A stretch of 64,000 nucleotides of DNA from Geomonas azotofigens (GTDB taxonomy: Bacteria; Desulfobacterota; Desulfuromonadia; Geobacterales; Geobacteraceae): positions 434,001 through 498,000 of the forward strand of contig NZ_JAHLME010000003.1 of the NCBI RefSeq assembly GCF_018919395.1, in the 5' to 3' direction. The translations under genes were made by a program, and so were the position numbers. Positions 6,418-40,284 of this stretch are shown in pieces. Position 1 is the first letter of the stretch. Each line of letters begins with the position of its first letter. The notes beneath the pieces were generated by a model, which did not search any database, had not been told where the DNA came from, and was given only the letters and a program-made list of their open reading frames with translations.

Positions 6418-6440
6418 AAGGCAGGCGGGCAGAGAACGAG

Positions 6441-6476
6441 AGAGCCGGCGACCAGATGGTCCGCCGGCTCTTTTCA
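6441..6476 (+). terminator. Rho-independent terminator
   Basis: AGAGCCGGCG (6441-6450) pairs with CGCCGGCTCT (6462-6471), followed by a T-rich tail. It ends the regulator transcript. Confidence 0.85.
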
Positions 6477-6494
6477 TTTTGGGCATCTTGTTTC

Positions 6495-6588
6495 TGTAGG
6501 GGCGAACGATCATTCGCCCTCGTTCTTTGTCTTGCGTGGGCAGTCCTGGGTGCCACCAGCGCTGGGCGAATAATTATTCGCCCCTACA
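6495..6588. repeat. Composite palindromic repeat, best copy
   Basis: A 94-base unit with inverted outer ends TGTAGGGGCGAA and TTCGCCCCTACA. Each half contains its own palindrome, GGCGAACGATCATTCGCC on the left and GGGCGAATAATTATTCGCCC on the right. It lies between convergent genes. Related copies are at 3107-3217 and 48689-48714. Confidence 0.7.
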
Positions 6589-6603
6589 GCGTGAGGATTC
6601 AGG

Positions 6604-7647: not shown

Positions 7648-9968
7648 TTGCTACCTCCTGAAATCGCCCGTGTCGCTTCCTGCGACTCGGTCCCCTGCAG
7701 GGTGTCCCTCACCTTTCTGATCAGGGCGTCACTCGTGAAGGGTTTGGGCAGGAACTGCATTCCCTTTTCCAGCGTCTTTTCGAAACTCACCCGGTTGTCG
7801 GTGTGCCCCGACATGAAGAGCACCTTGAGCTTCGGCTTCTTGGCCAAAAGTATCTCGGCCAGGGTGGGGCCGCTCATGAACGGCATCACCACATCGGTCA
7901 ACAGCATGTCGATCTGGTCGGCGTGCTGCTCGAACAGGGTGACTCCCTGCTCGGGGTCTGTCGTCTCCAGCACGGTGAACCCGCGCATCCTCAGGGTGTG
8001 CACCACGAGGTTCAGCACCCCGGGCTCATCCTCAACTACCAGAATGGTGTGATCGGTGTCAATGGGCTCATCCTGTTGCCGCTTGCCCTGGGACTCCGCC
8101 TCCTGGTACGTGCGCGGCAGGTAGATGTCGAAACGCGCCCCTTGGCCCGGCTCGCTGATCACCTCGATGTAGCCGCCGCACTGCTTCACGATGCCGTACA
8201 CGGTGGCGAGGCCGAGCCCGGTGCCGCGCCCCATCTCCTTGGTGGTGAAGAAGGGTTCGAAGAGCCGCTGCTTCACCTCGTCGGTCATCCCCTGGCCGCG
8301 GTCGGTGACGCTCAGCTTGACGTAACTGCCGACCTGCGAGCCCGGGTGCAGATGCCGGTACCCCTCGTCCAGTTCGCTGTTGCCGGTTTCCACCGTGATC
8401 ACGCCGCCGGTGTCGGAGGCGTCGCGGGCGTTGACCACCAGGTTCATGACGATCTGCTCCAGTTGCCCCGGGTCCATCTTGATCAGCCCGGCGTCCGGCG
8501 CGAGATCGGTTATGAGCCGGATGTTCTCGCCGATGAGCCGCTCCAGCATCTTCTGGACCGACTTCACCTGGCGGTTGATGTCCAGCACCCGCGGCTCCAT
8601 GATCTGGCGCCGGCTGAAACTGAGGAGCTGCCTGGTGAGGTCCGCGGCCCGCTCGCCGGCGCGCAGGATCTGCTCCGCCTCCTTGTGCATGGGCGAGCTC
8701 TCGTCAAGGGCCCGGATCAGCAGCGTGCTGTAGCCGTTGATCACGGTGAGCAGGTTGTTGAAGTCGTGGGCGATCCCTCCCGCCAGCTGCCCCACGGCCT
8801 CCATCTTCTGCACCTGTCGCAACTGGTCCACGGCGAGCTTTCTCTCGGTGATGTCCTCCTTGACCCCGACGAAGTGGGTGATCTGTCCTTCCGGGTTTTT
8901 CACCGCGGAGATGGAGCAGCTCTCCCAGAACAGCTCGCCGTTTTTCTTCCGGTTGTGCAGCTCGCCATGCCACTCCTTGCCGGAACAGATGGTCCCCCAG
9001 AGTTCCCGGTAGAACTCGACCCCCATGGTGCCGGACTTGAGGATGCTGGTCTTCACGCCGATCAGCTCGGCTTCGGGGTAGCCGCACACCTCGATGAACT
9101 TCGGGTTCACGTATTCGATGCATCCCTTGAGGTCGGTGATCACCACCGACACGGGGCTTTGTTCGACGGCGCGCCACAACTTGCTCAGTTCGGCCTCGGC
9201 GCGACGGCGCTCGGTGATGTCGAGCAGGGTGCCGATGACGGCGTCCGAGCCGTTGATCAGGGTCCTGGTGCCGTTCACCTCAAGGTCGATGGCGGCGCCG
9301 TCCTGCCGTTTGCCACGGAAGAAGAAATGCAGCGGCTCGCTCCCTTCCTTGAGCGGGCGCAGAAACTGGGTCAGCACGCGGATCTGGTCGTCGGGGGCGA
9401 CCAGGTCGAGGAGGCTGCGCTTTTCGATCAGCTGCTCGGGGGCATAACCGAAAATGGCGCACAGCTTCGGGTTCGCGTAGATGAAGATGTCCTCCTGCAA
9501 CATGAAGATGCCGACCAGGGACTGCTCCACGAGGCTTTGGAAACGCGCCTCGGTCGCGGAGAGCGCCTCCTCCGCCACGCGCCGCTCGCGGCGCACCACC
9601 GCCTCTCGCAGTTCCCGCTTGATGGCCGGGATCAGCCGTGACAGCCGGTCCTTGATCAGGTAGTCATGGGCGCCGGCGCGCATCGCCTCGACGGCGGCAT
9701 CCTCGCCCATCTGTCCCGACACCATGATGAAGGGGAGGTCGATGCCGCGCTCGTGCATGAGCTGCAGCGCTCCCGGGCCGCTGAAACGCGGCATCACGTA
9801 GTCGGAGATGACCAGGTGCCATCCTCCCCGGTCCAGCGCTTCATCCATCTCGTCCGGAGTCTCGACCCGCTCATAGACGGGAGCGAACTCCTTTTGCAGG
9901 TGCCGGACGATGAGGGTGGCGTCCTCGGGGGAATCGTCTACGATCAGGATGCGCAATGGATGTTTCAT
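7644..9968 (-). CDS. Hybrid histidine kinase REC-PAS-PAS-HisKA-HATPase-REC
   Basis: A 774-aa soluble sensor kinase with no membrane segment. Receiver about 5-120 (Asp56), two PAS domains about 140-380, phospho-accepting His401 in GGIAHDFNN, ATPase domain about 500-625 (MNLVVNARDA, GRGTGLGLA), and a second receiver about 650-765 (LLTDVVMP). The order implies phosphate transfer from an upstream partner to the N-terminal receiver and onward from the C-terminal one. It forms an operon with the HD-GYP regulator, linking a cytoplasmic signal to cyclic di-GMP breakdown. Confidence 0.92.
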   Translation of the reverse strand: MKHPLRILIVDDSPEDATLIVRHLQKEFAPVYERVETPDEMDEALDRGGWHLVISDYVMPRFSGPGALQLMHERGIDLPFIMVSGQMGEDAAVEAMRAGAHDYLIKDRLSRLIPAIKRELREAVVRRERRVAEEALSATEARFQSLVEQSLVGIFMLQEDIFIYANPKLCAIFGYAPEQLIEKRSLLDLVAPDDQIRVLTQFLRPLKEGSEPLHFFFRGKRQDGAAIDLEVNGTRTLINGSDAVIGTLLDITERRRAEAELSKLWRAVEQSPVSVVITDLKGCIEYVNPKFIEVCGYPEAELIGVKTSILKSGTMGVEFYRELWGTICSGKEWHGELHNRKKNGELFWESCSISAVKNPEGQITHFVGVKEDITERKLAVDQLRQVQKMEAVGQLAGGIAHDFNNLLTVINGYSTLLIRALDESSPMHKEAEQILRAGERAADLTRQLLSFSRRQIMEPRVLDINRQVKSVQKMLERLIGENIRLITDLAPDAGLIKMDPGQLEQIVMNLVVNARDASDTGGVITVETGNSELDEGYRHLHPGSQVGSYVKLSVTDRGQGMTDEVKQRLFEPFFTTKEMGRGTGLGLATVYGIVKQCGGYIEVISEPGQGARFDIYLPRTYQEAESQGKRQQDEPIDTDHTILVVEDEPGVLNLVVHTLRMRGFTVLETTDPEQGVTLFEQHADQIDMLLTDVVMPFMSGPTLAEILLAKKPKLKVLFMSGHTDNRVSFEKTLEKGMQFLPKPFTSDALIRKVRDTLQGTESQEATRAISGGSN

Positions 9969-10170
9969 CTGGGTCGGACCCCTCGCGTCGGTGCATCTGA
10001 TTCGTAACCTTCCTTCACCTCCTTATCGGCCGCCCCCCCGGATAGGTTTAGCCGCGCGGCGAATTTTATGAAAAAAGGAAAGAATATGAAACCGGCTTTC
10101 TTGGCTACTATTTGACGCCGGAGTATGCTATGAATCTTCCAGCTTCCCCCGCCGTAAAGGAGAAATCAGC

Positions 10171-11289
10171 GTGCACATCCTTTCTCTTGCCCGTCCCTTT
10201 TCCAAGATCCTGCTGCTTGTGCTGTTGTCCGCCTCCCTGGGCGCAGGCTGCTCCAAAGAGAGCGAGAAACCGAAGGCGAAAGCCCCTGCGCCGGTCACGG
10301 TGGCCCGGGCCTCCCAGAAGGACGTTCCCATCGAGCTGCGCGCCATCGGCAACGTCGAGCCCTACGCCACCGTGGCCCTCAAGTCCCGCGTCGCCGGCAT
10401 GATCACCGGGGTGCAGTTCAAGGAGGGGGACGACGTCGCCAAGGGGGCGCTTTTGTTCACCGTGGACCCGCGCCCGTTCCAGGCGCAGCTGGCGCAGGCC
10501 CAGGCGAACCTCGCCCGCGACACGGCCAGCGCCAACAACGCCAAGGAACAGGCGAAGCGCTACGCCTCGCTCTGGCAGGAGGGGATCGTGACCCGGGAGC
10601 AGTACGACCAGCTCCAGGCCACCGCCGATTCCCTCTCCGCCTCGGTGGCCTCGCTGCGCGCCGCGGTGGACAACGCCAAGCTGCAGCTTGATTACTGCTT
10701 CATCCGATCCCCCATGAGCGGGCGCACCGGCGGCCTCACCACCCACGCCGGCAACCTCGTCAAGGAAAACGACACCGCACTGGTCACCATCAACCAGATC
10801 ACCCCGCTTTACGTCACCTTCTCCCTGCCGGAAAAGGACCTGGCCGCCATCAAGGTGAGGATCGGCGGAAAACTCCCGGTCCAGGCGCGGGTCGCCGGGA
10901 GCGCCGTGGCGGAGCAGGGGACGGTGACCTTCCTGGACAACGGCGTTGATCCCGCCACCGGCACCATCAAGGTGAAGGGCACCTTCGCCAATGCCCGCAA
11001 AACGCTCTGGCCCGGCCAGTTCGTCAACGTCTCCATCACCCTCGACACCAGGAAGGGAGCGACCGTGGTCCCCACTCGCGCCGTTCAGACCGGGCAGCAG
11101 GGTGAATTCGTCTACGTCGTGAAGCCCGACGCCACGGCCGAGGTGCGCCCGGTCAGTACCGGGCCGTCCCTCGACGGAGTGACCGTCATCGAGAAGGGGC
11201 TTTCCCCTGGTGACACGGTCGTCACCGACGGGCAGGTGAAACTGGTTCCCGGCGCAAAGGTGGCGGTGAAGGGCGGGGCGCCCTCATGA
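10171..11289 (+). CDS. RND efflux periplasmic adaptor (membrane fusion protein), lipoprotein
   Basis: A 372-aa HlyD/AcrA-type adaptor that bridges an RND pump to an outer-membrane channel. It has a hydrophobic signal and a lipobox-like LGAGC ending near residue 27. The barrel-sandwich start AIGNVEPYATVALKSRVAG, a helical hairpin about 90-170 and the DFCFIRSP-like return strand (LDYCFIRSPMSG) follow. The start is GTG 10171 with AAAGGAG ahead. It overlaps the pump gene by 4 bases. No outer-membrane factor is in this operon. Confidence 0.9.
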   Translation: MHILSLARPFSKILLLVLLSASLGAGCSKESEKPKAKAPAPVTVARASQKDVPIELRAIGNVEPYATVALKSRVAGMITGVQFKEGDDVAKGALLFTVDPRPFQAQLAQAQANLARDTASANNAKEQAKRYASLWQEGIVTREQYDQLQATADSLSASVASLRAAVDNAKLQLDYCFIRSPMSGRTGGLTTHAGNLVKENDTALVTINQITPLYVTFSLPEKDLAAIKVRIGGKLPVQARVAGSAVAEQGTVTFLDNGVDPATGTIKVKGTFANARKTLWPGQFVNVSITLDTRKGATVVPTRAVQTGQQGEFVYVVKPDATAEVRPVSTGPSLDGVTVIEKGLSPGDTVVTDGQVKLVPGAKVAVKGGAPS

Positions 11290-28849: not shown

Positions 28850-30253
28850 ATGACAGCCAAAACAACGACACCACAACGCACCCTGCTCGTGGACGACGAA
28901 CCCGGTATCCTGACCGAGGTGTCGCTGCTGCTCGCCTCGAGCGACATTCCGGAGGTGGCCACCATATCGGATAGCCGGCAGGTGATCCCGTACGTGCGCG
29001 AGCACAGGGTGAATGCGGTGATCCTCGACTGGGTGATGCCCAACGTGACCGGGGCCGAGATTCTGCAGAGCCTGACCGTGGAGCACCCGGAGATCCCGGT
29101 GATCGTGATGACCGCCATGGGTGACGTCGAGACGGCGGTGACCAGCATGCGCCAGGGAGCATTCGATTTTCTCACCAAGCCGGTGGACCCCAACCGCCTG
29201 GTGGCGAGCGTCAAGAAGGCGCTCCAGGTGAGCGAGCTGGGACAGCAAAACCGCAAGCTCAAGGACTACCTGCTGGCGGACACACTCGGCAACCCCGACG
29301 CCTTCGCCGGGATCATCACCACTTCCAAGAAGATGCGCGGCATTTTCCAGTACATCGAGGCGATCGCCAGTTCGCGGCTGCCGGTCCTGATCACCGGCGA
29401 GACCGGCGTCGGCAAGGAGCTCCTGGCGCGCGCGGTGCACGACGTATCCGGCGTCCCCGGCCCCTTCATCTCGTTGAACGCCGCCGGGCTCGACGATTTC
29501 ATGTTTTCCGACACCCTCTTCGGCCACAAGAAGGGGGCCTTCACCGGCGCCGACAGCAAGCGTGACGGACTCATCAGCGCGGCCGCCGGCGGAACCCTCT
29601 TTCTCGACGAGATCGGGGACCTGAACCTCGCCTCCCAGATCAAGCTGTTGCGGCTATTACAGGAACGCGAGTACTATCGGCTGGGGTCGGACCTGCTTTT
29701 GAAGAGCGACGCTCGCATCGTGGCCGCCTCCAACATGGATTTCGCCGCCCTGCGCGCCGCCGGGACGTTCCGAAACGACCTCTACTACCGTCTCTGCGCC
29801 CACGAATTCCGCGTCCCTCCCTTGCGGGAGCGCCTTGAGGACGTGGAGGCACTGGTCGAATATTTCGTTGGGCAGATCGCGTCGCAGCAGGGGAAACCGG
29901 CTCCCAAGGTGCCGCAGAACGTGATCGCGGCGCTCAGGCAGTGCAGGTTCCCCGGCAACGTGCGCGAGCTCTACAACATGGTGCACCACGCAGTCACCTG
30001 CAACGAGGGGGCGCCCCTGTCGGTCGACGACTTTCCCGGGGTCGCGGCGGCGCCGGTGCGGGCGGCGCAGCCCGTGGACTGCGCCAACCCGTTGTTTTCG
30101 CTGTTCGGGAAGTTTCCGACCGTTTTGCAGGTCGAGGAGTACCTGATCGCCGAGGCCATGAAGCTCACCAGCGGCAACCAGACCCAGGCGGCGGAGCTTT
30201 TGGGACTGACCCGGCCGACCCTGAACAAGCGGCTCAAGCAGGAGCGTCAGTAG
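28850..30253 (+). CDS. Sigma54-dependent response regulator (NtrC type)
   Basis: A 467-aa activator. Receiver about 10-125 with Asp60 (VILDWVMP); AAA+ domain about 150-380 with Walker A GETGVGKE, an intact GAFTGA sigma54 loop and LFLDEIGDL; Fis-type helix-turn-helix at the end (AAELLGLTRPTLNKRL). It converges on the geopeptide maturase, overlapping its 3' end by 7 bases. The nearest kinase is the receptor-operon kinase at 34593, a possible partner. Confidence 0.92.
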   Translation: MTAKTTTPQRTLLVDDEPGILTEVSLLLASSDIPEVATISDSRQVIPYVREHRVNAVILDWVMPNVTGAEILQSLTVEHPEIPVIVMTAMGDVETAVTSMRQGAFDFLTKPVDPNRLVASVKKALQVSELGQQNRKLKDYLLADTLGNPDAFAGIITTSKKMRGIFQYIEAIASSRLPVLITGETGVGKELLARAVHDVSGVPGPFISLNAAGLDDFMFSDTLFGHKKGAFTGADSKRDGLISAAAGGTLFLDEIGDLNLASQIKLLRLLQEREYYRLGSDLLLKSDARIVAASNMDFAALRAAGTFRNDLYYRLCAHEFRVPPLRERLEDVEALVEYFVGQIASQQGKPAPKVPQNVIAALRQCRFPGNVRELYNMVHHAVTCNEGAPLSVDDFPGVAAAPVRAAQPVDCANPLFSLFGKFPTVLQVEEYLIAEAMKLTSGNQTQAAELLGLTRPTLNKRLKQERQ

Positions 30254-31584
30254 GAGGGTGCCGCCGGCTGGGAGGCAATGCCCTGCGTGACGACCTTTTT
30301 CCTGGAGGAAAGGTAGGTGAGGTTCTGCAGCACGGTCTTTTCCAGGGTGGCGTCGTAGAACTTGCGTCGACAGTCCACCTCGGTCAACGCCTTGCCTTGC
30401 AGCTTCATGACGAAACGGCAGCCGCCGAAGCAGAGCGGGAGATAGCTGCACTCCAGGCAGGTGTCCACCTGCCAATTCCCGATCCCGTGAGAGGCCCGGT
30501 AGTCCTTCAGTCCCTCGGACAAACTGCCGACGCTCAACTCTTGCGTGCCCATGAATGCCGGGCACTTGTAGAATCTCCCCGTGCAGTCCACCACCAGGTT
30601 GTCCTTTAGTTCCACGATGCACGCAGACGGCTTTAGGGTAGGGGCGCGGTAGCCCCGGGCGAGCGTGGCCTCGCGCAAAAACGGGACCGCCTCCATGAGC
30701 CACGGTTCCTCGGACAGCGCGCAGCCGGAGTTGACGTCGGAGCAGCCGCCCGCGGAAACTACGGGCGTGAACATCACCACCGCGAGCTTGTCGGGGGTGA
30801 TGCCGTAGCGGGGGAGCTGGTCCAGCAGCCGTGGGAACTCGCGGTAGTTTTCCGGCCGGAAGTTCGCCCCCAGCTGGATGGAAATGAGGTCGCACACCTG
30901 CACCAGGTTGTCCACGATGATGTCGAAACTGCCGGCGCCTGACGCGTACGGACGCTGGACGTCGTGAATCTCCCTGGGGCCGTCCAGGGTGAACTTGGCG
31001 CCAAGCAGCCCCAGGGGGAGCAGCTGCAGGGCCGTGTTGCGGTCCAGCAGCGTGCCGTTAGTGACCAGGTTGAAAGCGTACGTGACCCCGTGGCTTTGGG
31101 CCGCGGCCCGCAGCGGTTCCGAGATGCGCCGGATCAGGTCCTGGGACAGCAGCGGCTCCCCGCCGTAAAACGATATCGTGACATCCCACCCCTGCGCGAT
31201 CCTCTCCCGTATCAGTGCCTGCACCAAAAGGTCCGCGGTCGCCTCCGACATGTAGTGCCCGCAACGGAACTCTCCTTCGAAGCAGTAGCCGCAGTCCAGG
31301 TTGCAGTCGAGGTTCAGCACCACCGAGATCTTGAAGTGGCGTGCCTCGCCGTTGGCGCGCGTGATGAGGCCGCGTAGCTGCTCTTTCTCCAGGTCGGGAT
31401 CCTGAACCACGATGCCGATCCTGGCCAGTGCCGCGCACTCCGCCTCGGGGAACGTGCCGTCTTGCAGCGCCGAAAGTTTTTCGAGAGGGACCGATGCCAC
31501 CGAGCCGCGCAAGGTTGAGTAGAGGATGAAGTGACCGGGACGGTCGGGGGAGGGGAAGACCTTCAGGTAACGCGAAAGTTTCAT
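30247..31584 (-). CDS. Radical SAM/SPASM peptide maturase (geopeptide type)
   Basis: A 445-aa RiPP-modifying enzyme. The radical SAM site CNLDCGYC has Cys94, 98 and 101. The SPASM part near 335-410 shows CTGRFYKCPAF and CLECSYLPLCFGGC for auxiliary Fe-S clusters. The N-terminal 80 residues are a peptide-recognition-like region. It lies directly downstream of a 36-aa precursor on the same strand, the arrangement described for Geobacter geopeptides. It likely installs a thioether or other radical crosslink using the precursor cysteines; the actual product is unknown. Confidence 0.88.
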   Translation of the reverse strand: MKLSRYLKVFPSPDRPGHFILYSTLRGSVASVPLEKLSALQDGTFPEAECAALARIGIVVQDPDLEKEQLRGLITRANGEARHFKISVVLNLDCNLDCGYCFEGEFRCGHYMSEATADLLVQALIRERIAQGWDVTISFYGGEPLLSQDLIRRISEPLRAAAQSHGVTYAFNLVTNGTLLDRNTALQLLPLGLLGAKFTLDGPREIHDVQRPYASGAGSFDIIVDNLVQVCDLISIQLGANFRPENYREFPRLLDQLPRYGITPDKLAVVMFTPVVSAGGCSDVNSGCALSEEPWLMEAVPFLREATLARGYRAPTLKPSACIVELKDNLVVDCTGRFYKCPAFMGTQELSVGSLSEGLKDYRASHGIGNWQVDTCLECSYLPLCFGGCRFVMKLQGKALTEVDCRRKFYDATLEKTVLQNLTYLSSRKKVVTQGIASQPAAPSY

Positions 31585-31652
31585 GGGATGGTACCTATGG
31601 TGAGACCACTTGTTGTCGCAGTCATACTTGTCATGGGTAACGGATCTACTTT

Positions 31653-31687
31653 AGTGTCGCCTTCCCGGCTGCTGGAAAGGCGACACT
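31653..31687 (-). other. Strong RNA hairpin between precursor and maturase
   Basis: A 14-base arm (AGTGTCGCCTTTCC read leftward) pairs almost perfectly with GGGAAGGCGACACT over a 7-base loop. No T run follows, so it is unlikely to be a full terminator. It is placed to stabilise the short precursor mRNA or reduce read-through, giving more peptide than enzyme. Confidence 0.75.
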
Positions 31688-31696
31688 CGTTCCATG

Positions 31697-31807
31697 TCAT
31701 ATCTTGCTTGCCCAGAGGTACACGTAGATACAGCAGCCAAGTCCATCCATGTCTTCCATGCCGGTTCCTTCATCAAGAATTTCCAATGCCACGTTTTCTT
31801 TTGCCAT
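31697..31807 (-). CDS. Geopeptide-type RiPP precursor, 36 aa
   Basis: A 36-aa peptide starting at ATG 31807 with GGAGGAG ahead. The first half is acidic and leader-like (residues 1-21, ending EDMD). The second half starts near Gly22 and carries adjacent Cys25-Cys26, then an aromatic-rich stretch with Tyr28, Tyr30 and Trp32. Only 112 bases separate it from the radical SAM maturase. The peptide is probably modified at the Cys pair. Biological role unknown. Confidence 0.8.
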   Translation of the reverse strand: MAKENVALEILDEGTGMEDMDGLGCCIYVYLWASKI

Positions 31808-31925
31808 TGCGCTCTCCTCCTTTGGGTTGGTGAAAACCTTGGACTTTTTTAACAGGCCGTGGTACATTAGCATAACCTTATTTGGCCCGCAATGATAAAT
31901 TTGTTTTTTTTTATGAGGAGGGGGT

Positions 31926-33755
31926 GTGAGGAAGACGTCCGCAGTTATGTCAGTGTATGCCACAGTCAGATTGATGCTGTTGACTGTGGCGCTCTGCATG
32001 CTGACAGTGGGGCCGGCGAGGAGCGACGACGACCTGAGTTCACTGGAGCTGTTCAGCGGGGAAGGGGCTGAGCTGGTCTCCGCGAGCCGGTCCCCCCGTC
32101 CCGCCTCCCAGACAGCGGAAAATATAACGGTTGTCACGGCTGAAGAAATCAAGGCGCTGAACGCGCACACCCTGCCTGATATCCTTTACGCCGTCACCGG
32201 CATCCAATCGGAGGTGATCGGTACCCCCGGCACCATCACCAACATCGAAATACAGGGCTCGGACTTCGACCACGTACTGGTCCTGATCGACAACGTCCCA
32301 GTCAATAGCCTATCCGACAATTTTCCTGACCTGGCCGCCATCCCGGCGCAGATCATCGACCGGATCGAGATCGTGAAGGGGGCGGCATCCAGTTCATGGG
32401 GGAGCGCCCTGGGTGGCGTCATCAACGTGATTACCAAGATGCCGCAGCAGGACCGCGCCATCGACGGCACCGTGACCGGCTCCTATGGGACCAGGGAGAC
32501 GGCGGACGGTCGAATCGAGGCGACCGGCACCGTGGACCGACTGGGCTATTACCTGACTGGAGGCACGCTCAGTTCGGACGGCCTACGCAGCAATAACCAG
32601 TCCGATCTCAAGAACCTTTACGGCAAGCTGCACTATGAGCTTCCGGTACGGGGGGGCGTGACCCTCTCCACCCTTTACAGCTACAAAAAAACCGGACTTC
32701 TTGCCCTTCCCGGCATCGACATCAATGACCAAAAGCACGAGCTCGTCTCGTCGCTCGCCCTGCAACTGCCGCTGGACAACCGGGTCACCCTGGACGCCGC
32801 CCTGCGGACTCGACAGAGCGACACGGAGATGTTCGTAATCCGCAAACCGGATGCAGCCCTCCTGCAAAGCGCACTCGAGGAGGACCACAGCAGCGGCGGA
32901 AGCGTCAAGCTTTCGTGGCTGGGCGAATGGCAACTGGTCGTGGCCGGCGTTGACTACGACCACGTCAAGGTGAAGCTGCGGGGAGGCGCGTCACCAGGCG
33001 AGGAGTCTAAAGGCGCCGACCGCCTCGGTGTCTACCTGAACGACACCTTCACTGCCGGCAACTTCGCGATAACCCCCAGCGCCCGTTTCGACTGGACCGG
33101 CTTCGGGGGAAACCGTTTCAGTCCCAGCTTCGGCATCACCTACGCCTTGAGCGAGAACAGCCTGCTGCGCGGCTACACCGCCCGGGGCTACAGCCTCACC
33201 TCCCTGAACCGGGCCGACTCCACCGAGAAGGTGTGGACCTCTCAAATTGGCTACGAGTCCGGGGAAATCCCCTACCTCTGGCTCAAGGCGACCCTCTTTA
33301 GAAACGACACCTGGGACGTCATCAGCAACGAGTTCAGCACCATCGTCAAGAAGAGACAATTAAAGCAAGGCGGCGAATTCGAACTGCGCACCGTTCCCGT
33401 TTTCAACACCTCGCTCTCCACCGGCTACACCTACATTTACTCTACCGATGGGGGGGATGGGGCCGCGCTCAATTCGGTACCGAAGCACACCCTCAAGCTC
33501 GGGGTGCGCTACCGGGACCCGTCACGGCTGCAGGCGCAAATCACGGGACACTACATCGACTGGAACGCTACTGACGGCAGGAGCAGGGGCATTCTCTGGG
33601 ACCTGCACCTGAGCAAGACCTTCGAGTATTCCGAATTCGGGTCGGTCGAGCTCTTCGGCTCGCTCAGGAACATCTTCGACGGTCAGCAGTACCTTTCCGA
33701 ACTGTACAAGAACACGGGGCGCTGGGCGGAAGTGGGGGTGAGATGTCACTTCTAA
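31926..33755 (+). CDS. TonB-dependent outer-membrane receptor
   Basis: A 609-aa receptor. It has a signal peptide of about 33 residues, a plug domain about 45-165 (ENITVVTAEEIKALNAHTLPDILYAVTGIQ, with DRIEIVKGAASSSWGSALGGVINVITK), then a beta-barrel ending in the aromatic residue Phe. This size fits BtuB/siderophore-type receptors. The start is GTG 31926 behind GAGGAGGGG. It overlaps the next gene by 13 bases, so it is translated together with a binding protein and a kinase. No TonB/ExbBD genes are near. Confidence 0.9.
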   Translation: MRKTSAVMSVYATVRLMLLTVALCMLTVGPARSDDDLSSLELFSGEGAELVSASRSPRPASQTAENITVVTAEEIKALNAHTLPDILYAVTGIQSEVIGTPGTITNIEIQGSDFDHVLVLIDNVPVNSLSDNFPDLAAIPAQIIDRIEIVKGAASSSWGSALGGVINVITKMPQQDRAIDGTVTGSYGTRETADGRIEATGTVDRLGYYLTGGTLSSDGLRSNNQSDLKNLYGKLHYELPVRGGVTLSTLYSYKKTGLLALPGIDINDQKHELVSSLALQLPLDNRVTLDAALRTRQSDTEMFVIRKPDAALLQSALEEDHSSGGSVKLSWLGEWQLVVAGVDYDHVKVKLRGGASPGEESKGADRLGVYLNDTFTAGNFAITPSARFDWTGFGGNRFSPSFGITYALSENSLLRGYTARGYSLTSLNRADSTEKVWTSQIGYESGEIPYLWLKATLFRNDTWDVISNEFSTIVKKRQLKQGGEFELRTVPVFNTSLSTGYTYIYSTDGGDGAALNSVPKHTLKLGVRYRDPSRLQAQITGHYIDWNATDGRSRGILWDLHLSKTFEYSEFGSVELFGSLRNIFDGQQYLSELYKNTGRWAEVGVRCHF

Positions 33756-34591
33756 AACTTCTGCTGCTGGTGCTCTTCACGCTGACACCGACGCTCGCCC
33801 TGGCCTACGACGTCCTCTTGCTCCAGTCCATGCACGACAAGGGGTACGACGAGGCGGTGCGCGGCTTCAAGCGCGACTGTCGCGGCTCGGTGCGCCGCAT
33901 CGTCCTCGCCGATTACGCCGAGCTCGACCTCACCCGCATCACCCGCGAGGAACACCCGAAACTGATCGTGGCGGTGGGGGACCGGGCCCTGGAACTGGCG
34001 CAAAAGCAGCACGCCACGCCGGTACTGTACATGATGGCGCTTAACGCCAAGCCGCGCGGCGCCGTGGGCGGCGTCAGCATGCTGCTTGACCCGGGGCGCT
34101 ACCTCTCCGTGTTCGGGGAGATGGGCGCGGAACGGGTGGGGGTGCTCTATGACCCGGCCAGAAGCGGGGGGTACGTGAAACGCGCGGTCGCCGCGGCCGC
34201 GCGCTGCGGAGTGAAGCTCGTGTTGCGCGAGGTGCATGCCCCCAAGGAAACGCCGGCCATGCTCGCCTCCTTGAAGGGTAAGGTCAACGCGCTCTGGATG
34301 CTCCCCGACACGACCGCGGTATCCCCGGGCTCCACCGAAGCCTATTTCCTCTTTTCCCAGGCGGAGCGGGTGCCCGTGGTCACCTTCGCCGACGTCTACC
34401 TCTCCATGGGAGGGGCCGTCGCCCTCACCATCGACCGCTACGACATCGGGCGTCAGGTCGCCGAACTGGCGCAGCGCGTGCTGGATGGGAACCCGCCCGA
34501 AGAGGGGGGGGAGCCGCCCAGGCGCGCGATCACCAGGAGCAACGACAGCGTGGTGCGCCAGTTGAAGCTGAACGGCGCGGTGGGGCACTGA
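33743..34591 (+). CDS. Periplasmic ABC-type substrate-binding protein (ABC_sub_bind, PF04392-like)
   Basis: A 282-aa protein with a signal peptide cleaved near LALA-YD. It shows the binding-protein fold with HPKLIVAVGDRALELAQKQ, PVLYMMALNAKP and VPVVTFADVYLSMGGAVALTIDRYDIGRQVAELAQRVLDG. No ABC permease or ATPase is adjacent. Placed between a receptor and a kinase, it probably delivers a ligand to the kinase periplasmic domain instead of importing it. The ligand is unknown. Confidence 0.8.
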   Translation: MSLLKLLLLVLFTLTPTLALAYDVLLLQSMHDKGYDEAVRGFKRDCRGSVRRIVLADYAELDLTRITREEHPKLIVAVGDRALELAQKQHATPVLYMMALNAKPRGAVGGVSMLLDPGRYLSVFGEMGAERVGVLYDPARSGGYVKRAVAAAARCGVKLVLREVHAPKETPAMLASLKGKVNALWMLPDTTAVSPGSTEAYFLFSQAERVPVVTFADVYLSMGGAVALTIDRYDIGRQVAELAQRVLDGNPPEEGGEPPRRAITRSNDSVVRQLKLNGAVGH

Positions 34592-34592
34592 C

Positions 34593-36233
34593 ATGAGAAG
34601 AAGGAAACTGCGACTCCCCCCCTACGCGAAGAGCTTCCGGTTCCGGCTCTACCTGATTTTCACCGTCACCATCGCGCTGCTCACCGCCGCCTTTGTCACC
34701 TTCTACGTCCTCACCGAGCTGAACGCCTTCCGCTCCAACATGGAGCGGGAGGGGAAGCTCCTCGCGACCGTCCTGGCCCAGAACGCGCGCCTGCCGCTCT
34801 TCGCGGAAAACAGGGAGGCGCTGGACATCCTGGCCGACGGGACCGCGCGCTACCCGTCGGTGCTTTCCGTTTCCATCGTGGACCGGGAGGGGAGGCTTCT
34901 CGCCCAGCAGGTGAAATCGCAGACGGTGCCCGGTGACGTGATCGACATGCGGGTGCCCGTCAGCTCTCCCAGCGGGGTACTCTCCCCGGAGTCGGCGCTG
35001 CTTGGGCAGCCCCAGGGGAACGAGCAGCGGGTCATCGGGGAGGTGCGCCTGAAGCTGGACACCTCGGCGGCGCGCGAACGGCTGGTCGCCCTGGTGGCGG
35101 CCTCGCTGGCCATCGGCATCCTGTTCTGGATCCTGGTTTCCCTTTTGTGCTACCAGATCCTGAAGAGGGTCACCAACTCATTCAACCTGCTTCTGGGCGG
35201 TATCGAGAAGATCGGCAACGGCACCCTCTCCGCCCGGGTGGGCCTGGACGGCGACGACGAACTGGGACGTGCCGCCAACGCCATCAACGCCATGGCCGCC
35301 TCGCTGGAGCTGCGCGAACTGGAAAACCAGGCGCTGCAGGATGAGTTGCTGCGCGCCATGCGGCTGGAGGTGCAGGAGGAGAAAAAACAGGTCATGGCGC
35401 GGCTGATCCAGACCAACAAGATGACTTCGCTGGGTCTGCTCCTTTCCTCCATGGCGCACGAGATCAACAACCCCAACGCCTCGATCCGTTTTTCGGGGCA
35501 CATGATCGGCAAGATGCTCGCCGACGCCCTCCCCCTTCTGGACGGGGTATGGCAGGAAGAGGGGGAGTTCTACCTGGGGGGGGTGCCGTACCAGAAGGCG
35601 CGGCTGGTGCTCACCGAGAATGCCGGCAAGATCGTCGAGAATTCCGAGCGCATCGCCCAGGTGGTGCAGGGACTGCGCGATTACGGGGTAGGGGGAGGGG
35701 GACAGTTGCGCCAGAGGCTGGAGATAAACGGCGCCGTGTCGGCGGCCCTGTCGGTGCTGGCCTGCCAGATGAAACGGGACGTGCAGCTGCACACATCCCT
35801 GGGTACCTCGATCCCGGCCGTCGCCGGGAGCCAGCAGCAGATCGAGCAGGTGCTCATCAACCTGATCCTCAATGCCATGCAGTCCTGTGCCGGCCGCAGC
35901 GGCGAGGTCCATCTCAGCACCCGCCACGACGTCGCCAAGGGGGAGGTGGTGGTCGAGGTGCGCGACAACGGGGTCGGCATCACTCCCGAGACCAAGGAGC
36001 GGCTGTTCGAGCCATTCTTTTCCACCAAGCTGGAACTGGGCGGCAGCGGGCTTGGACTGTACATCTCGCAGTTCATCGTGTCCGAGCACGGCGGCCGGCT
36101 GCAGCTCGACTCCACGCTCGGCAAGGGTACCGTGGCGACCGTGGTGCTCCCGGTCGCCCCTGCCTCAGTGGTGGGCATGCTCCCCGCCCAGCTCGGTCAG
36201 CATGCCGCCGATCCGCTCCATGAGGTCGGTTAA
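34593..36233 (+). CDS. Membrane histidine kinase with periplasmic sensor and HAMP
   Basis: A 546-aa kinase. Membrane helix about 17-40, periplasmic sensor about 40-165, second helix about 167-190, HAMP about 190-245, phospho-accepting His289 in SSMAHEINNPNAS, ATPase domain about 405-530 (NLILNAMQS, VRDNGVGI, GGSGLGLYISQF). It starts one base after the binding-protein stop, so the three genes form one sensory operon. The C terminus overlaps a convergent small gene. Confidence 0.92.
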   Translation: MRRRKLRLPPYAKSFRFRLYLIFTVTIALLTAAFVTFYVLTELNAFRSNMEREGKLLATVLAQNARLPLFAENREALDILADGTARYPSVLSVSIVDREGRLLAQQVKSQTVPGDVIDMRVPVSSPSGVLSPESALLGQPQGNEQRVIGEVRLKLDTSAARERLVALVAASLAIGILFWILVSLLCYQILKRVTNSFNLLLGGIEKIGNGTLSARVGLDGDDELGRAANAINAMAASLELRELENQALQDELLRAMRLEVQEEKKQVMARLIQTNKMTSLGLLLSSMAHEINNPNASIRFSGHMIGKMLADALPLLDGVWQEEGEFYLGGVPYQKARLVLTENAGKIVENSERIAQVVQGLRDYGVGGGGQLRQRLEINGAVSAALSVLACQMKRDVQLHTSLGTSIPAVAGSQQQIEQVLINLILNAMQSCAGRSGEVHLSTRHDVAKGEVVVEVRDNGVGITPETKERLFEPFFSTKLELGGSGLGLYISQFIVSEHGGRLQLDSTLGKGTVATVVLPVAPASVVGMLPAQLGQHAADPLHEVG

Positions 36234-36464
36234 GGCATCCCCCTGGGAACCCTCGCCGCAGATCCTGCGCATCTGGTTCAACAACCCCTCGAAAACGTCC
36301 TCTCCGCAGGCCCCCGTTACCATGTCGTTGGTGAGCCTGTCGTTCAAAAGCAGCCGCTTCATCTGGATCAGCTGAATCTCCACGCGCAGCTTCTTGATGG
36401 TGGGCAGGTCGCTTTGCTTGAGCAGCTGGAGGCACTGGTTGATGATGCTGTACTGGTGGTCCAT
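36165..36464 (-). CDS. Small helical protein overlapping the kinase 3' end
   Basis: A 99-aa soluble, helix-rich protein (LLKQSDLPTIKKLRVEIQLIQMKRLLLND). The ATG is preceded by GGGAG. Its last 69 bases run antisense to the end of the kinase gene. A sigma54-like promoter lies ahead of it. The ribosome site, coding character and size support a real gene; family not recognised. Confidence 0.6.
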   Translation of the reverse strand: MDHQYSIINQCLQLLKQSDLPTIKKLRVEIQLIQMKRLLLNDRLTNDMVTGACGEDVFEGLLNQMRRICGEGSQGDALTDLMERIGGMLTELGGEHAHH

Positions 36465-36509
36465 GGTCTTCTCCCGATCGCGTTGACATTGAAACTAGAT
36501 ACGCTGCTT

Positions 36510-36524
36510 CCAATATCCGTGCCA
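36510..36524 (-). promoter_or_regulatory. Sigma54-like promoter with imperfect -12 element
   Basis: Read leftward it is TTGGCACGGATATTGGAA. The -24 TGGCACG is perfect and the spacing correct, but the -12 reads TTGG where GC is expected at the last two bases. It lies about 45 bases before the small gene at 36464. Activity is doubtful. Confidence 0.3.
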
Positions 36525-36714
36525 AGTCTGGCGGGGAAAAGCGATGCAAGATCCGGCACTTATGCCACATCGATGTGGCGGGCGGGACGGGACGGAGTGT
36601 GCATTTTTTTACAGTTTCCGAAGCGCCGCGCGAAAAACGCCGGTGGCGGGAGACTTTACCGGCGCTTTGTAAAAAAAGGAACTGTTCGTTTTTTTACAGG
36701 TGGGCGCCGCCGCC

Positions 36715-37086
36715 TCACCTGCCCAATGCGGCGCTCACCGCCGCGGTGATCTGTTCCGGCGTGAAAGGCTTCAGGATGTAGCCGTTGGCCTTGGCCTCGT
36801 CCACCAGCTGGCGCATCTCGGCTTCGCTCTTGGAGGAGAGGAGCAGGATCGGGATGTCGCGGCTCACCTCGTTCTCCTTCAAAAGCTTCGCCTTCTTGTT
36901 GCCGTCCAGCATGGGCATCATGATGTCCATGATGATCAGGTCGGGCCTGTCCTTGGAGAAAATGAAACGGTTGGCCTCTATGCCGTTGGTGGCGGTGACC
37001 ACCTGGTAACCGGCTTGATCAAGGGCGTCCTTGGCCATGGCTAGTACCAGTTCGCTGTCGTCGATGATGAGGATCTTTTCTTTCAA
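36715..37086 (-). CDS. CheY-like single-domain response regulator
   Basis: A 123-aa receiver with Asp9, Asp10, phospho-acceptor Asp54 (IIMDIMMP), Ser-Ser switch residues and the conserved Lys in ILKPF. Last gene of the chemosensory operon; its start overlaps cheB by 4 bases. It is the likely output of the CheA hybrid, either to a motor or to a non-motility target. Naming it cheY is tentative. Confidence 0.88.
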   Translation of the reverse strand: MKEKILIIDDSELVLAMAKDALDQAGYQVVTATNGIEANRFIFSKDRPDLIIMDIMMPMLDGNKKAKLLKENEVSRDIPILLLSSKSEAEMRQLVDEAKANGYILKPFTPEQITAAVSAALGR

Positions 37087-38177
37087 GGCACGTCTCCTTT
37101 CTGGGGTTGATGTTGCCGCGGATGAACGCCGGTCCCGGCTGCGGGGCGTTCCGCCACGAACAGTTCGTCCAAAGCGGCGGGAATGAGGTCCAGGGGGACC
37201 ACCTGGTCGGCCGCGTCGAGGGTGATGGCGGCCTTGGGCATGCCGAACACCGCGCAGGAGGGCTCGTCCTGGACGATGGTGGTCCCGCCGGCCTCCCTGA
37301 TATGCAGCATCCCCTGGGCGCCGTCGCGCCCCATCCCGGTCAACAGCACGGCCACCACCTGGTCGCAGCGCTGCCGCGCCAGCGAATCGAAGAAGACATC
37401 GATGGAGGGGCGACAGCAGTTTACCGCAGGGGCGTCGTTGAGCAAGGTGACACCGTCGGCGACGGTGAGGTGTCTGCCGTCGGGAGCCACGAGCGCCTCG
37501 CCGGCGCGGAAGGGGGCGCCGTCACGGGCGAGCCTGACCGGCAGGGCGCACTCCCGGTCCAGCCAGTTGGCGAAGCCGGCGGCGAACCCCTGCGCGATGT
37601 GCTGGACCACGAAGACCGCCCCGGGGAAGTCCGCCGGCAGGGCCTTCAAAAGCCGCATCACCGCCTTGGGGCCGCCGGTCGAGGCTCCGATGGCGAGGAT
37701 GCTGTGTCCGGGGCCGCCGGGGAGCGTGGCGAGCGGCTCGTCCGGGCGCGGTTTGCGCCGGGGGTGCCGGATGACCCGGATCCTTGCGAGGAAAAGGACC
37801 TTCTCCCGCAGCGTGGCGGCGAACTCCGCCAGCGCCCCGGCGCCGTCCAGTCTCGGCTTCTCCATGACGTCCAGCGCCCCCCTCTTGATGGCGACGAAGG
37901 CGCGGTCCACCTCGCTGGCCTCCACCGCCGCCGAGAGGACCAGCACCGGGGTAGGGTGGAGGGCCATGATCTCCTCGATGGCGTCCAGCCCGTCCAGCAC
38001 CGGCATCAGCAGGTCCATGATCACGAGGTCGGGCTTGAGCGCCTGGACCAGTTCGACCGCCTGCCTGCCGTCGCACGCCTCGCCGACCACGCGGATGTCG
38101 TGGCTTTCCTGCAGCATGTCCTTGAGCACCTGGCGCGCGAGGAGGGAATCGTCGGCCAGAAGCACCCTCGTGGTCAT
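37083..38177 (-). CDS. cheB: Chemotaxis response regulator protein-glutamate methylesterase
   Basis: A 364-aa CheB: receiver about 3-120 (Asp55) and methylesterase about 160-345 with catalytic Ser in IGASTGGPKA, His in VVQHIAQGF and Asp in LTGMGRDGAQG. It removes methyl groups or deamidates the receptor. It follows cheA after 64 bases and has AAGGA ahead. It would be balanced by the CheR-like gene of the same operon. Confidence 0.95.
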   Translation of the reverse strand: MTTRVLLADDSLLARQVLKDMLQESHDIRVVGEACDGRQAVELVQALKPDLVIMDLLMPVLDGLDAIEEIMALHPTPVLVLSAAVEASEVDRAFVAIKRGALDVMEKPRLDGAGALAEFAATLREKVLFLARIRVIRHPRRKPRPDEPLATLPGGPGHSILAIGASTGGPKAVMRLLKALPADFPGAVFVVQHIAQGFAAGFANWLDRECALPVRLARDGAPFRAGEALVAPDGRHLTVADGVTLLNDAPAVNCCRPSIDVFFDSLARQRCDQVVAVLLTGMGRDGAQGMLHIREAGGTTIVQDEPSCAVFGMPKAAITLDAADQVVPLDLIPAALDELFVAERPAAGTGVHPRQHQPQKGDVP

Positions 38178-38241
38178 AGCAACTATCCTTCCTTTGCCTT
38201 CCTCGGCACGGCAACGGGCGTGCCGGCGTGAAGACGGTTTC

Positions 38242-40284
38242 TCAGCCGATCAGCATCTGCACCGTTTCCAGCAGCAGACCCTGGTCGAAGGCGCCCTTGA
38301 CGATGTAGGCCTGCGCCCCGGCCTGCAGCGCCTGGCGCTTGTCCTCGTCGCGCGACAGCGACGAGACGATGATCACCGGCGTTTCCCGGTAGCGCTCCGA
38401 GGCGCGCAAGGCCCGGGTCAGCTCGAAGCCGTTGATCCCCGGCATCTCCACGTCGGAGATCACCAGGTCGAACTGCTCCTCGGCGCTCTTCTCCAGGGCG
38501 TCCTCGCCGGAGACCGCCGTCACCACCGCGTACCCCTGGCTGACCAGGATACTCTGCTCCATGGTGCGGGTGGTGATGGAGTCGTCGACCACCAGCACCT
38601 TTGGGCGGCGCTTCGCCGCCTGCGCCTCATCGGCCGAGAGGGTGGCGCGCTGCACGCCGCGACCGGACTCGAACAGGTCCGGGACGTTCAGGATCAACGC
38701 GGGATTGCCGTCCCCGAGGATGGTGGCGCCGAACAGGAACCTGACGTTTCGGAACTGCTTGCCCAGCCCCTTGACCACCACCTCGCTGTAGCCCAGGTGG
38801 GCCTCCACGGTGCAGGCGATGCGCTGGTCGCAATGCTTCAAGACCACCGCCGAGAGCGGCGCGTCGCCGGCATCGCGGCGCTCGGGGAGCCCCAGCATCC
38901 CCGGCAGACTGTACAGCGGCGTGGTCGCGCCGCGCACCTTGATCACCTCGCCGCTGCCGAGCGTGTCGATCTCGCTGGCGCGCACCTTGACGATCTCCTG
39001 CAGGTAGGTGGTGGGGATGGCGAAGGTCTCGCCGCCGCAGGCGACGATCAGCGCGTCCAGGACGGAAAGGGTGAGCGGAAGCTGCAGGGTGACCTGGGTG
39101 AAGCTCCCCGGCTCGCTGGCCAGGGTCACGCTCCCCTTGACCCGCTCGATGTTCTTCTTCACCACGTCCATCCCCACCCCGCGCCCGGAGATGTCGGTGA
39201 CGATCTCGGCCGTGGAGAAGCCGGGACGGAAGGTGAGGTAGAGCGCCTCCTCGTCGCTGATGCCGTCCGCCTCGCGCGGATCGAGCACGCCGCGCGCGAC
39301 CGCGGCCGCCCTGATGCTGGCCGGGTCCATGCCCCGCCCGTCGTCGCGCACCTCGACCAGCACCGAGTTCCCCTCGTGGCGGGCCGAGAGGAGCACGGTG
39401 CCCCGGCGCGGTTTCCCTGCGGCGGCGCGCGCCTCCGGGGCCTCGATGCCGTGGGAGAGGGCGTTGGTCAGGAGGTGGATCAGAATCGGTTTGAGCCCCT
39501 CCAGGAGCACCCGGTCGATCTCGATGGCCTGCCCGATGATCTGGAACTGCACCTCGCGCCCCAGCTGCTGCGCCAGGTCCCGCACCAGGCGCTCCAGGCC
39601 GTCGGAGATGGTCCGCAGCGGCAGCATGCGCAGCCCCATCGCCTTGCCGTGCAGCTCCTGGATCAGGTAGTCGAGGTAGAGGACGTCCTCCTCGAGCTCG
39701 CCCCGGAAAGTCGTCAGCGGCGCGCTGTGCTCGGCGGGAAGGGCGCAGGCGATCTCCTTGAGCTGCGCAAGCTTCGCCTCCAGGCGCTTCTTGTTGATGA
39801 TCAGCTCCCCGACCAGGTTCACCAGGTGGTCCAGGGTCTTCACGTCAGCCCGCACCGTGTCCGAAGCCGCCTCGGGCTGGTGCTCCTTGGGCTCGGCGTG
39901 CAGGTGCTGCCCCAGCTCGCCCCGCTCGTACTCGGCGACGAAGCGCTCCACGTCCAGTTCCGGCGCCTCGCCGCGCACCAGCGCCGACGTGATCAGCGCC
40001 ACCGCGTCGGCGCCGCGCAGAAGGAGATCGATGGCCTGGGCATCCACCTTGCGCTCGCCCCGCTCCATCCCCTTCAACTGCTCCTCCATGGTATGGGTGA
40101 TGGCGCTGATGTCGGCGAGCCCCACCATGCGGGCGGACCCCTTCAGGGTGTGCGCGTTGCGCAGCAGCTCGTGCAACAGGTCGGTCCTGGCCGGATTTCT
40201 CTCCAGCACCAGCAGGCCGCTCTGCAGCGAGGCCAGGTGCTCCTCCGCCTCGCGGCAGAAGATCTCCAGGTAACGGTTCGCCAT
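38242..40284 (-). CDS. cheA: Hybrid CheA histidine kinase with C-terminal receiver
   Basis: A 680-aa kinase. Hpt domain about 1-110 with His45 in NAHTLKGSARMVG; P3 dimerisation about 155-215; ATPase about 215-400 (NALSHGIEAPEAR, RGVGMDVV); CheW-like about 400-535; receiver about 555-680 (LVISDVEMPGING). CheA with an attached receiver is typical of alternative (Wsp/Frz-like) systems rather than classical flagellar control. Its ATG directly follows the mcp stop, with GAGGAAGAGG inside the mcp end. Confidence 0.93.
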   Translation of the reverse strand: MANRYLEIFCREAEEHLASLQSGLLVLERNPARTDLLHELLRNAHTLKGSARMVGLADISAITHTMEEQLKGMERGERKVDAQAIDLLLRGADAVALITSALVRGEAPELDVERFVAEYERGELGQHLHAEPKEHQPEAASDTVRADVKTLDHLVNLVGELIINKKRLEAKLAQLKEIACALPAEHSAPLTTFRGELEEDVLYLDYLIQELHGKAMGLRMLPLRTISDGLERLVRDLAQQLGREVQFQIIGQAIEIDRVLLEGLKPILIHLLTNALSHGIEAPEARAAAGKPRRGTVLLSARHEGNSVLVEVRDDGRGMDPASIRAAAVARGVLDPREADGISDEEALYLTFRPGFSTAEIVTDISGRGVGMDVVKKNIERVKGSVTLASEPGSFTQVTLQLPLTLSVLDALIVACGGETFAIPTTYLQEIVKVRASEIDTLGSGEVIKVRGATTPLYSLPGMLGLPERRDAGDAPLSAVVLKHCDQRIACTVEAHLGYSEVVVKGLGKQFRNVRFLFGATILGDGNPALILNVPDLFESGRGVQRATLSADEAQAAKRRPKVLVVDDSITTRTMEQSILVSQGYAVVTAVSGEDALEKSAEEQFDLVISDVEMPGINGFELTRALRASERYRETPVIIVSSLSRDEDKRQALQAGAQAYIVKGAFDQGLLLETVQMLIG

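What the first reader, a model, noticed from the sequence alone, without database searches (positions are those of the whole stretch)
28850..36464. Geopeptide RiPP genes inside a possible sensory circuit
A 36-aa precursor with Cys25-Cys26 and its radical SAM/SPASM maturase run leftward. A TonB receptor, an ABC-type binding protein without transporter, and a membrane kinase run rightward from the same intergenic region. A sigma54 response regulator converges on the maturase. Seen directly: order, spacing and motifs. Known: geopeptide-type precursors next to such maturases occur in Geobacter. Inferred: the peptide, once modified, could be sensed by or regulated through the receptor-binding protein-kinase-activator chain.
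Basis: partly seen in the sequence, partly recalled or inferred. Interest (0 to 1): 0.8.

Follow-up and report, generated by a model that had tools for sequence, protein, structure and literature searches.

The report
Modified peptide with its own receptor circuit
A small enzyme-modified peptide in Geobacter relatives, and in some distant bacteria, nearly always sits beside genes for an outer-membrane receptor, a binding protein and a sensor kinase, which suggests that these bacteria sense a peptide signal of their own making.

Summary
In detail: a 36-aa Cys-Cys precursor and a geopeptide-type radical SAM maturase diverge from a TonB receptor / PF04392 binding protein / HAMP kinase operon, and a sigma54 regulator converges on the maturase. 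Among 140 maturase rows (127 in the order, 13 outside), TonB lies within 4 kb in 106 of 109 with full flanks (133 of 140 in all), the binding protein within 5 kb in 102 of 107, a kinase within 7.5 kb in 80 of 86. Of 20 further loci from other families of the phylum, 18 have TonB; the two misses lie on short contigs. Of 54 control loci of weaker maturase relatives, 1 has a weak TonB and 0 the binding protein. Gene order differs between lineages; the gene set stays. No ABC ATPase motif lies within 3 kb of the binding protein in 120 loci. Best reading: a RiPP with its own sensing circuit, perhaps a pheromone. Ligand, export and phosphotransfer are unproven; the receptor module also occurs without the maturase; no sigma54 promoter was found at the window's precursor.

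The parts
28850..30253 (+). sigma54-dependent response regulator (receiver, AAA+ with GAFTGA, Fis-type HTH); candidate output of the circuit
   Evidence: 49 of 52 loci with a window-type kinase also carry it
30247..31584 (-). geopeptide radical SAM/SPASM maturase (TIGR04280)
   Evidence: 641.5 bits vs cut-off 400; closest solved chain by sequence 5wgg, E 1.2e-17
31653..31687 (-). 17-bp inverted repeat between precursor stop and maturase start; mRNA hairpin, probably sets the precursor:maturase ratio (inference)
   Evidence: best hairpin below -8 kcal/mol in this gap in 67 of 74 loci with a gap of 20-300 nt (a best-of search without a shuffle control)
31697..31807 (-). geopeptide precursor, 36 aa, Cys25-Cys26
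   Evidence: motif-matching precursor beside 99 of 140 maturase rows; 0 matches in 777 kb of control loci
31808..31925 (.). divergent intergenic region with conserved blocks; no sigma54 -24/-12 site found
   Evidence: alignment of 8 genus loci
31926..33755 (+). TonB-dependent outer-membrane receptor
   Evidence: Plug and barrel; within 4 kb of the maturase in 106 of 109 full-flank rows
33743..34591 (+). orphan periplasmic binding protein, PF04392, fold like the L-Trp-bound 3lft
   Evidence: model pLDDT 72; no ABC ATPase motif within 3 kb in 120 loci
34593..36233 (+). membrane histidine kinase: sensor region between two long helices, HAMP, catalytic domain
   Evidence: one base after the binding protein; kinase 60 bases or less behind the binding protein in 76 of 120 loci

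Best explanation
This is a RiPP with its own cell-surface sensing chain. Shown by sequence: a short precursor with an acidic leader motif (VLDEG-like), a Cys-Cys and a variable C-terminal core; a SPASM maturase; and, linked to them in several gene orders and in two phyla, a TonB receptor, a periplasmic binding protein without a transporter, and a sensor kinase, in many loci with a sigma54 regulator. Inferred: the maturase cross-links the core, probably by a thioether on one or both Cys (its relatives include PapB and SCIFF maturases); the product leaves the cell by an exporter encoded elsewhere; it, or a complex it forms, is taken to the periplasm by the TonB receptor and bound by the binding protein; the loaded binding protein changes the kinase, which phosphorylates the sigma54 regulator (window-type circuits) or a receiver domain of its own (hybrid kinases of other lineages). 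Since no inner-membrane transporter was found beside it, the periplasmic ligand is more likely read as a signal than fed to the cytoplasm. Most likely it reports the producer's own population or kin.
For: Linkage in the order and beyond against 54 control loci: TonB 1 weak, binding protein 0, kinase 7. TonB receptors are rare: in 3 of 10 genomes the linked one is the only plug-domain hit. Several gene orders with one gene set; binding proteins and kinases of variant layouts confirmed by Pfam in the 10 proteins scanned. Orphan binding protein: 0 of 120 loci with an ABC ATPase motif within 3 kb; TonB directly upstream in 86 of 120 (median overlap of 1 base), kinase directly downstream in 84 of 120. 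In 19 genus loci (18 with a precursor) mean pairwise identity is 18% for the core after CC, 45% leader, 57% TonB barrel vs 75% plug, 68% kinase sensor vs 81% catalytic part, 88% regulator AAA+. Partial Mantel given a flanking gene: core distance tracks receptor plug 0.49, barrel 0.24, binding protein 0.22, kinase catalytic part 0.33 and maturase 0.50, but not regulator (0.07, 0.01), HD gene (-0.10) or the 99-aa ORF (0.05). One genome (G067) holds three diverged sets with TonB, binding protein and kinase. Rank correlations of distances: TonB-binding protein 0.76, kinase-regulator 0.70.
Against: No exporter found: 1 of 134 loci has an ABC ATPase motif within 4 kb of the maturase, and other exporter types were not tested. 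The receptor module occurs without a maturase: of 17 TonB-binding protein pairs in 10 genomes 11 are beside an over-cut-off maturase and 1 beside a truncated one; 12 pairs in 8 of 24 non-carriers (pairs counted by eye). The kinase sensor does not covary with the core (0.08), and partial Mantel tests are liberal. Binding protein (70%) and kinase sensor (68%) are no faster than the flanking CheA and CheB hits (68% each), so only core, barrel and maturase (64%) stand out. Maturase distances track the kinase weakly (0.24). No sigma54 site at the window's precursor. Kinases are common, so kinase linkage alone is weak. L142 and L146 keep maturase, kinase and regulator without TonB, binding protein or a recognisable precursor. 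41 of 140 rows have no motif-matching precursor.
Confidence: 0.5

Rival explanations
1. Metallophore-like system: the Cys-Cys peptide is secreted, captures a metal or metal complex, and TonB receptor, binding protein and kinase return and report the loaded complex, much as methanobactin uses MbnT and MbnE.
For: Vicinal Cys in the motif-defined precursors; TonB receptor plus periplasmic binding protein as for methanobactin (PMC7558416 passages); hosts are largely metal-reducing or sulfate-reducing lineages (recalled).
Against: No linked ABC ATPase; the binding protein is of the PF04392 kind whereas MbnE is OppA-related; the core around CC varies.
Confidence: 0.22
2. The receptor-kinase chain senses an outside compound that is not the peptide, and switches on the peptide, which acts as an effector (antimicrobial, redox cofactor or surface factor).
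For: The receptor module occurs without a maturase; sigma54-like sites in the precursor sense in other lineages: 15 of 90 segments vs 3.4 expected, 55-66 bases before the precursor in several; 3lft, the best structural match of the binding protein, holds L-Trp.
Against: Does not explain why the core covaries with receptor and binding protein, nor why maturases are rarely without a receptor.
Confidence: 0.22
3. Neighbourhood by descent only: an old cluster inherited as a block without functional coupling.
For: In most of the genus the whole block, chemotaxis genes included, is syntenic.
Against: Beyond the genus the flanking genes of the window are mostly absent and the set is rearranged yet kept; multi-copy genomes keep diverged sets.
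Confidence: 0.04

Closest known systems
Geopeptide / geopeptide maturase (NCBIfam TIGR04229 / TIGR04280)
   Same: Maturase 641.5 bits, over the cut-off; precursor hits the geopeptide model.
   Different: TIGR04229 scores this precursor below its cut-off, another in-order precursor at 22.2 bits, and gave no hit for the two outside-order precursors tried; maturases titled Nitrospirota pass TIGR04280; the model names as printed say nothing of a receptor circuit.
Isopeptidase-type lasso peptide clusters of proteobacteria
   Same: RiPP gene linked to a TonB-dependent transporter and regulators, as a rule without ABC exporter (PMC9266682 passages).
   Different: Other chemistry; sigma/anti-sigma pair where here a binding protein, kinase and sigma54 regulator stand; an isopeptidase, not seen here.
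Methanobactin (mbn) operons
   Same: RiPP with TonB receptor MbnT and periplasmic binding protein MbnE (PMC7558416 passages).
   Different: Different maturation enzymes (recalled), OppA-related binding protein, copper uptake; no kinase is named in the passages seen.
SCIFF-derived ranthipeptides of clostridia
   Same: SPASM thioether maturases; reported in quorum sensing (Chen 2020, seen only as cited in PMC8326336).
   Different: Six Cys, Gram-positive, no TonB or periplasm (recalled); this maturase scores 84.7 against 425 for TIGR03974.
Graspetide loci of Bacteroidetes with TonB-related proteins
   Same: RiPP loci where a TonB-related protein was found nearby (PMC8939145 passages).
   Different: ATP-grasp chemistry; there the TonB-related protein is predicted to serve export.
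LuxP-LuxQ type binding-protein/kinase pairs (recalled)
   Same: A periplasmic binding protein working with a membrane kinase, no transporter.
   Different: The ligand there is AI-2, with no TonB receptor and no RiPP (recalled).

Membership tests
Geopeptide maturase TIGR04280 | score over the curated cut-off of 400 bits | tested here: met
   641.5 bits
Geopeptide maturase TIGR04280 | radical SAM CxxxCxYC and SPASM domain | tested here: met
   invariant columns in 6 aligned maturases; TIGR04085 SPASM domain 45.9 vs 27 bits
Geopeptide precursor TIGR04229 | score over the curated cut-off of 30 bits | tested here: not met
   26.4 bits, E 4e-06; the motif family defined here is wider than the model
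Ranthipeptide | beta or gamma thioether in the mature peptide | not testable with these tools
   maturase resembles PapB, CefB and SCIFF maturase models, none over its cut-off; needs mass spectrometry
Lasso peptide with TonB and isopeptidase | isopeptidase and sigma/anti-sigma pair in the cluster | tested here: inconclusive
   not among the cassette genes scanned; the other ORFs were judged by eye only
Methanobactin-like operon | MbnE-type (OppA-related) binding protein | tested here: not met
   PF04392 is the only Pfam family at E 0.01; best folds 3lft and 6hni
Peptide pheromone circuit | export of the peptide and response of producer or kin to it | not testable with these tools
   no linked ABC ATPase in 133 of 134 loci; needs experiment
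Two-component pair | kinase and regulator co-occur | tested here: met
   49 of 52 loci with a window-type kinase; distance correlation 0.70; phosphotransfer untested

The most novel reading that the evidence does not exclude
A new class of Gram-negative peptide signalling: a radical-SAM-modified RiPP pheromone with a hypervariable core is recaptured through its own outer-membrane TonB receptor, handed to an orphan periplasmic binding protein and read by a kinase, in species-specific and paralogous versions across Desulfobacterota and Nitrospirota; receptor modules without a maturase would be eavesdroppers.
Probability: 0.38. Interest if true: 0.92.

Novelty: new variant of a known kind. Interest (0 to 1): 0.74.

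Why it matters
Geopeptides are named in NCBI's models, but the word occurs in no paper of the open library searched (one search found only unrelated uses of 'geopep'). The linkage gives them a testable function: a RiPP with a matched receptor, binding protein and kinase. If the peptide is the ligand, many bacteria of soils and sediments would have a peptide signalling system that can be read or blocked, and the TonB receptor would be a route for self-made signals as it is for siderophores. Diverged copies of the cassette, in one genome and between species, are a natural series for studying receptor-ligand specificity.

Tried and rejected
A sigma54 promoter at the window's precursor or receptor: not found. 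The window has 11 matches with 10.4 expected, none in the divergent region; I see no -24/-12 element conserved in 8 aligned genus loci; the best score among 21 genus precursors is 15.7 of 20.2, mean 13.06, third lowest of six groups. Elsewhere precursor-sense sites are enriched (15 of 90 segments vs 3.4; 7 vs 0.7 at the higher threshold; 25 vs 13.4 at the lower); TonB-sense sites are 6 vs 3.6, 0 vs 0.7 and 19 vs 13.3. The segments include close relatives, so these are not counts of events. A first version with simpler shuffles is.

A linked exporter: ABC ATPase motif within 4 kb of the maturase in 1 of 134 loci; other exporter types were not tested. Receptor module always with peptide: rejected (L158-L162, without a motif-matching precursor). 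Hairpin by alignment of guessed coordinates missed the region; replaced. The kinase model (pTM 0.36) was not used for a fold search. The binding-protein model is moderate (pLDDT 72, TM 0.56 to 3lft). Literature searches for the combination found nothing on it (listings only); passages concern graspetides.

Counts: the 140 rows are maturase ORFs over 200 bits on a profile built here, from 134 loci; they include tandem copies and two genes in fragments (L091, L130). Fetched in the order were 120 stretches; nine over-cut-off places were left out. The 13 outside loci were picked by me from the 80: eight by title (two of them Nitrospirota), five (L177, L179, L185, L186, L187) by low identity only, so their order is not verified. 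The 20 are the 20 best-scoring of 26 over-cut-off places outside the order. The 54 controls are the weaker hits (L191-L245 without L209); they include Gram-positives without TonB receptors and their flanks vary. The 777 kb are L191-L245 with L209, itself a maturase locus without a match. The 24 non-carriers are those that I chose at 90% completeness or more among the 40 genomes without an over-cut-off match. The profiles were built from the same loci that they count; the 20 loci are the test on loci not used to build them.

Full report
What is there. The window lies in an assembly of 4.97 Mb in 18 contigs; the nearest named relatives of its binding protein are from Geomonas. The precursor (31697-31807, minus) is followed by a hairpin (31653-31687) and the maturase (30247-31584, minus). 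Divergently run a TonB receptor, a PF04392 binding protein overlapping it by 13 bases and, one base on, a kinase. The sigma54 regulator (28850-30253) meets the maturase tail to tail.

Is the neighbourhood conserved? A search of 141 genomes of the order with TIGR04280 found 101 with a match over the cut-off, all 19 of the genus among them. I fetched 120 stretches. A first pass with the window's own proteins showed TonB and binding protein beside nearly every maturase, in at least four arrangements. Profiles built from these loci gave the counts. Per group, all rows (TonB, binding protein, kinase): genus 22, 21, 22 of 22; rest of the family 28, 26, 24 of 29; second family 6, 6, 1 of 6; third 11, 11, 10 of 13; fourth 54, 51, 43 of 57; outside 12, 11, 10 of 13. 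With full flanks the sums are 106 of 109, 102 of 107 and 80 of 86. Most misses are on contigs that end too soon; with full flanks 3 rows miss TonB, 5 the binding protein and 6 the kinase. L142 and L146 lack TonB and binding protein but have kinase and regulator.

Beyond the order. One search named relatives in Nitrospirota (L174, L183) and in Desulfobacteraceae, Desulfobulbaceae and Desulfurivibrionaceae MAGs. The two Nitrospirota maturases are over the TIGR04280 cut-off (600.7 and 535.1 bits). TonB is beside 12 of the 13 examined (L185, with 824 bases on one side, has none of the set). A separate draw of 395 genomes of the phylum had 31 with an over-cut-off match. In 20 such loci outside the order TonB 18, binding protein 16, kinase 14; with full flanks 11 of 11, 6 of 7 and 7 of 7. 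No contig length is shared between these and the 13. The family is patchy: the eight other genomes of the same class shown had none, but 335 genomes without a match are not listed there.

Controls. In 54 loci of weaker maturase relatives TonB 1 (23 bits), binding protein 0, kinase 7. In 10 genomes TonB plugs number 1-8 and PF04392 matches 2-6; the chance of a plug within 4 kb averages 0.7% per genome. The genomes are related, so I do not multiply these.

The peptide. A motif scan found precursors beside 99 of 140 rows and, with a looser motif, in 14 of the 20 new loci, with 0 matches in 777 kb of 55 control loci. The motif is a VLDEG-like leader, Cys-Cys and a short tail. In 18 genus members the core after CC is 18% identical on average against 45% for the leader. 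The receptor barrel (57%) varies more than the plug (75%), the kinase sensor (68%) more than the catalytic part (81%). But flanking CheA and CheB hits average 68% too, so sensor and binding protein (70%) are not fast in themselves. Core distances track receptor, binding protein, maturase and kinase catalytic part beyond a flanking gene, not the regulator, HD gene or 99-aa ORF; the kinase sensor does not follow. Physical linkage and the liberal test may add to this. Hairpins between precursor and maturase were found in 67 of 74 loci, several with a T run as in a leaky terminator; there was no shuffle control.

The circuit. The binding protein resembles solved PF04392-type proteins by sequence and fold and has no ABC ATPase motif within 3 kb in 120 loci. 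The window-type kinase co-occurs with the sigma54 regulator in 49 of 52 loci, against 7 of 55 other loci with any kinase or regulator hit; the 3 exceptions are L125, L062 and L073, all on stretches cut short by a contig end. Hybrid kinases with their own receiver stand in other layouts. So the input side looks constant and the output side exchangeable.

Limits. TonB-binding protein pairs exist without the maturase (L158-L162). No exporter was found. The genus has no sigma54 site at the precursor, though other lineages show an excess. Export, modification, binding and phosphotransfer are all inference.

Known relatives. Lasso peptides with TonB transporters and sigma/anti-sigma pairs and methanobactin with MbnT and MbnE show the principle of a RiPP with its own outer-membrane route; in PMC8326336 passages SCIFF peptides are listed with quorum sensing. 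In PMC4289311, a survey of RiPPs in anaerobes, the term search found no 'TonB' (passages). A radical SAM RiPP with TonB receptor, orphan binding protein and kinase did not appear in the searches, which cover an open library only and were judged by listings. I therefore call it a new variant of a known kind.

Noticed in passing
36165-36464 (-) and 36509-36525 (-): A 99-aa ORF without family hits, overlapping the kinase's 3' end, is conserved in the genus. Upstream stands TTGGCACGGATATTGGA, a sigma54-like -24 element with GG in place of GC at -12; the pattern TTGGCAYRNATATTGGA is found exactly in 12 further genus stretches while the flanks drift. A candidate target of the regulator.
   Followed up: partly
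L158 (G000:C14:62000-81000), about 5623-10658: A second kinase, TonB receptor and PF04392 module in the same genome without maturase or motif-matching precursor; similar modules in L159-L161.
   Followed up: partly
L163 (G125), 7712-8656: A truncated maturase beside TonB, binding protein, kinase and regulator, with no precursor match: the sending half looks lost, the receiving half kept.
   Followed up: partly
L142, L146: Maturase next to a window-type kinase and sigma54 regulator without TonB, binding protein or motif-matching precursor.
   Followed up: no
L060 (G050): Two maturases in tandem with several near-identical precursors that differ in the core.
   Followed up: no
L069, L070, L074, L085, L141, L144, L148: Strong sigma54-like sites in the precursor sense; 57-66 bases before the precursor in L069, L070, L074 and L144.
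   Followed up: partly
36715-40284 (-): Response-receiver, CheB-like and CheA-like genes beside the cassette (labels from reading, not from a family search), syntenic in most of the genus.
   Followed up: no
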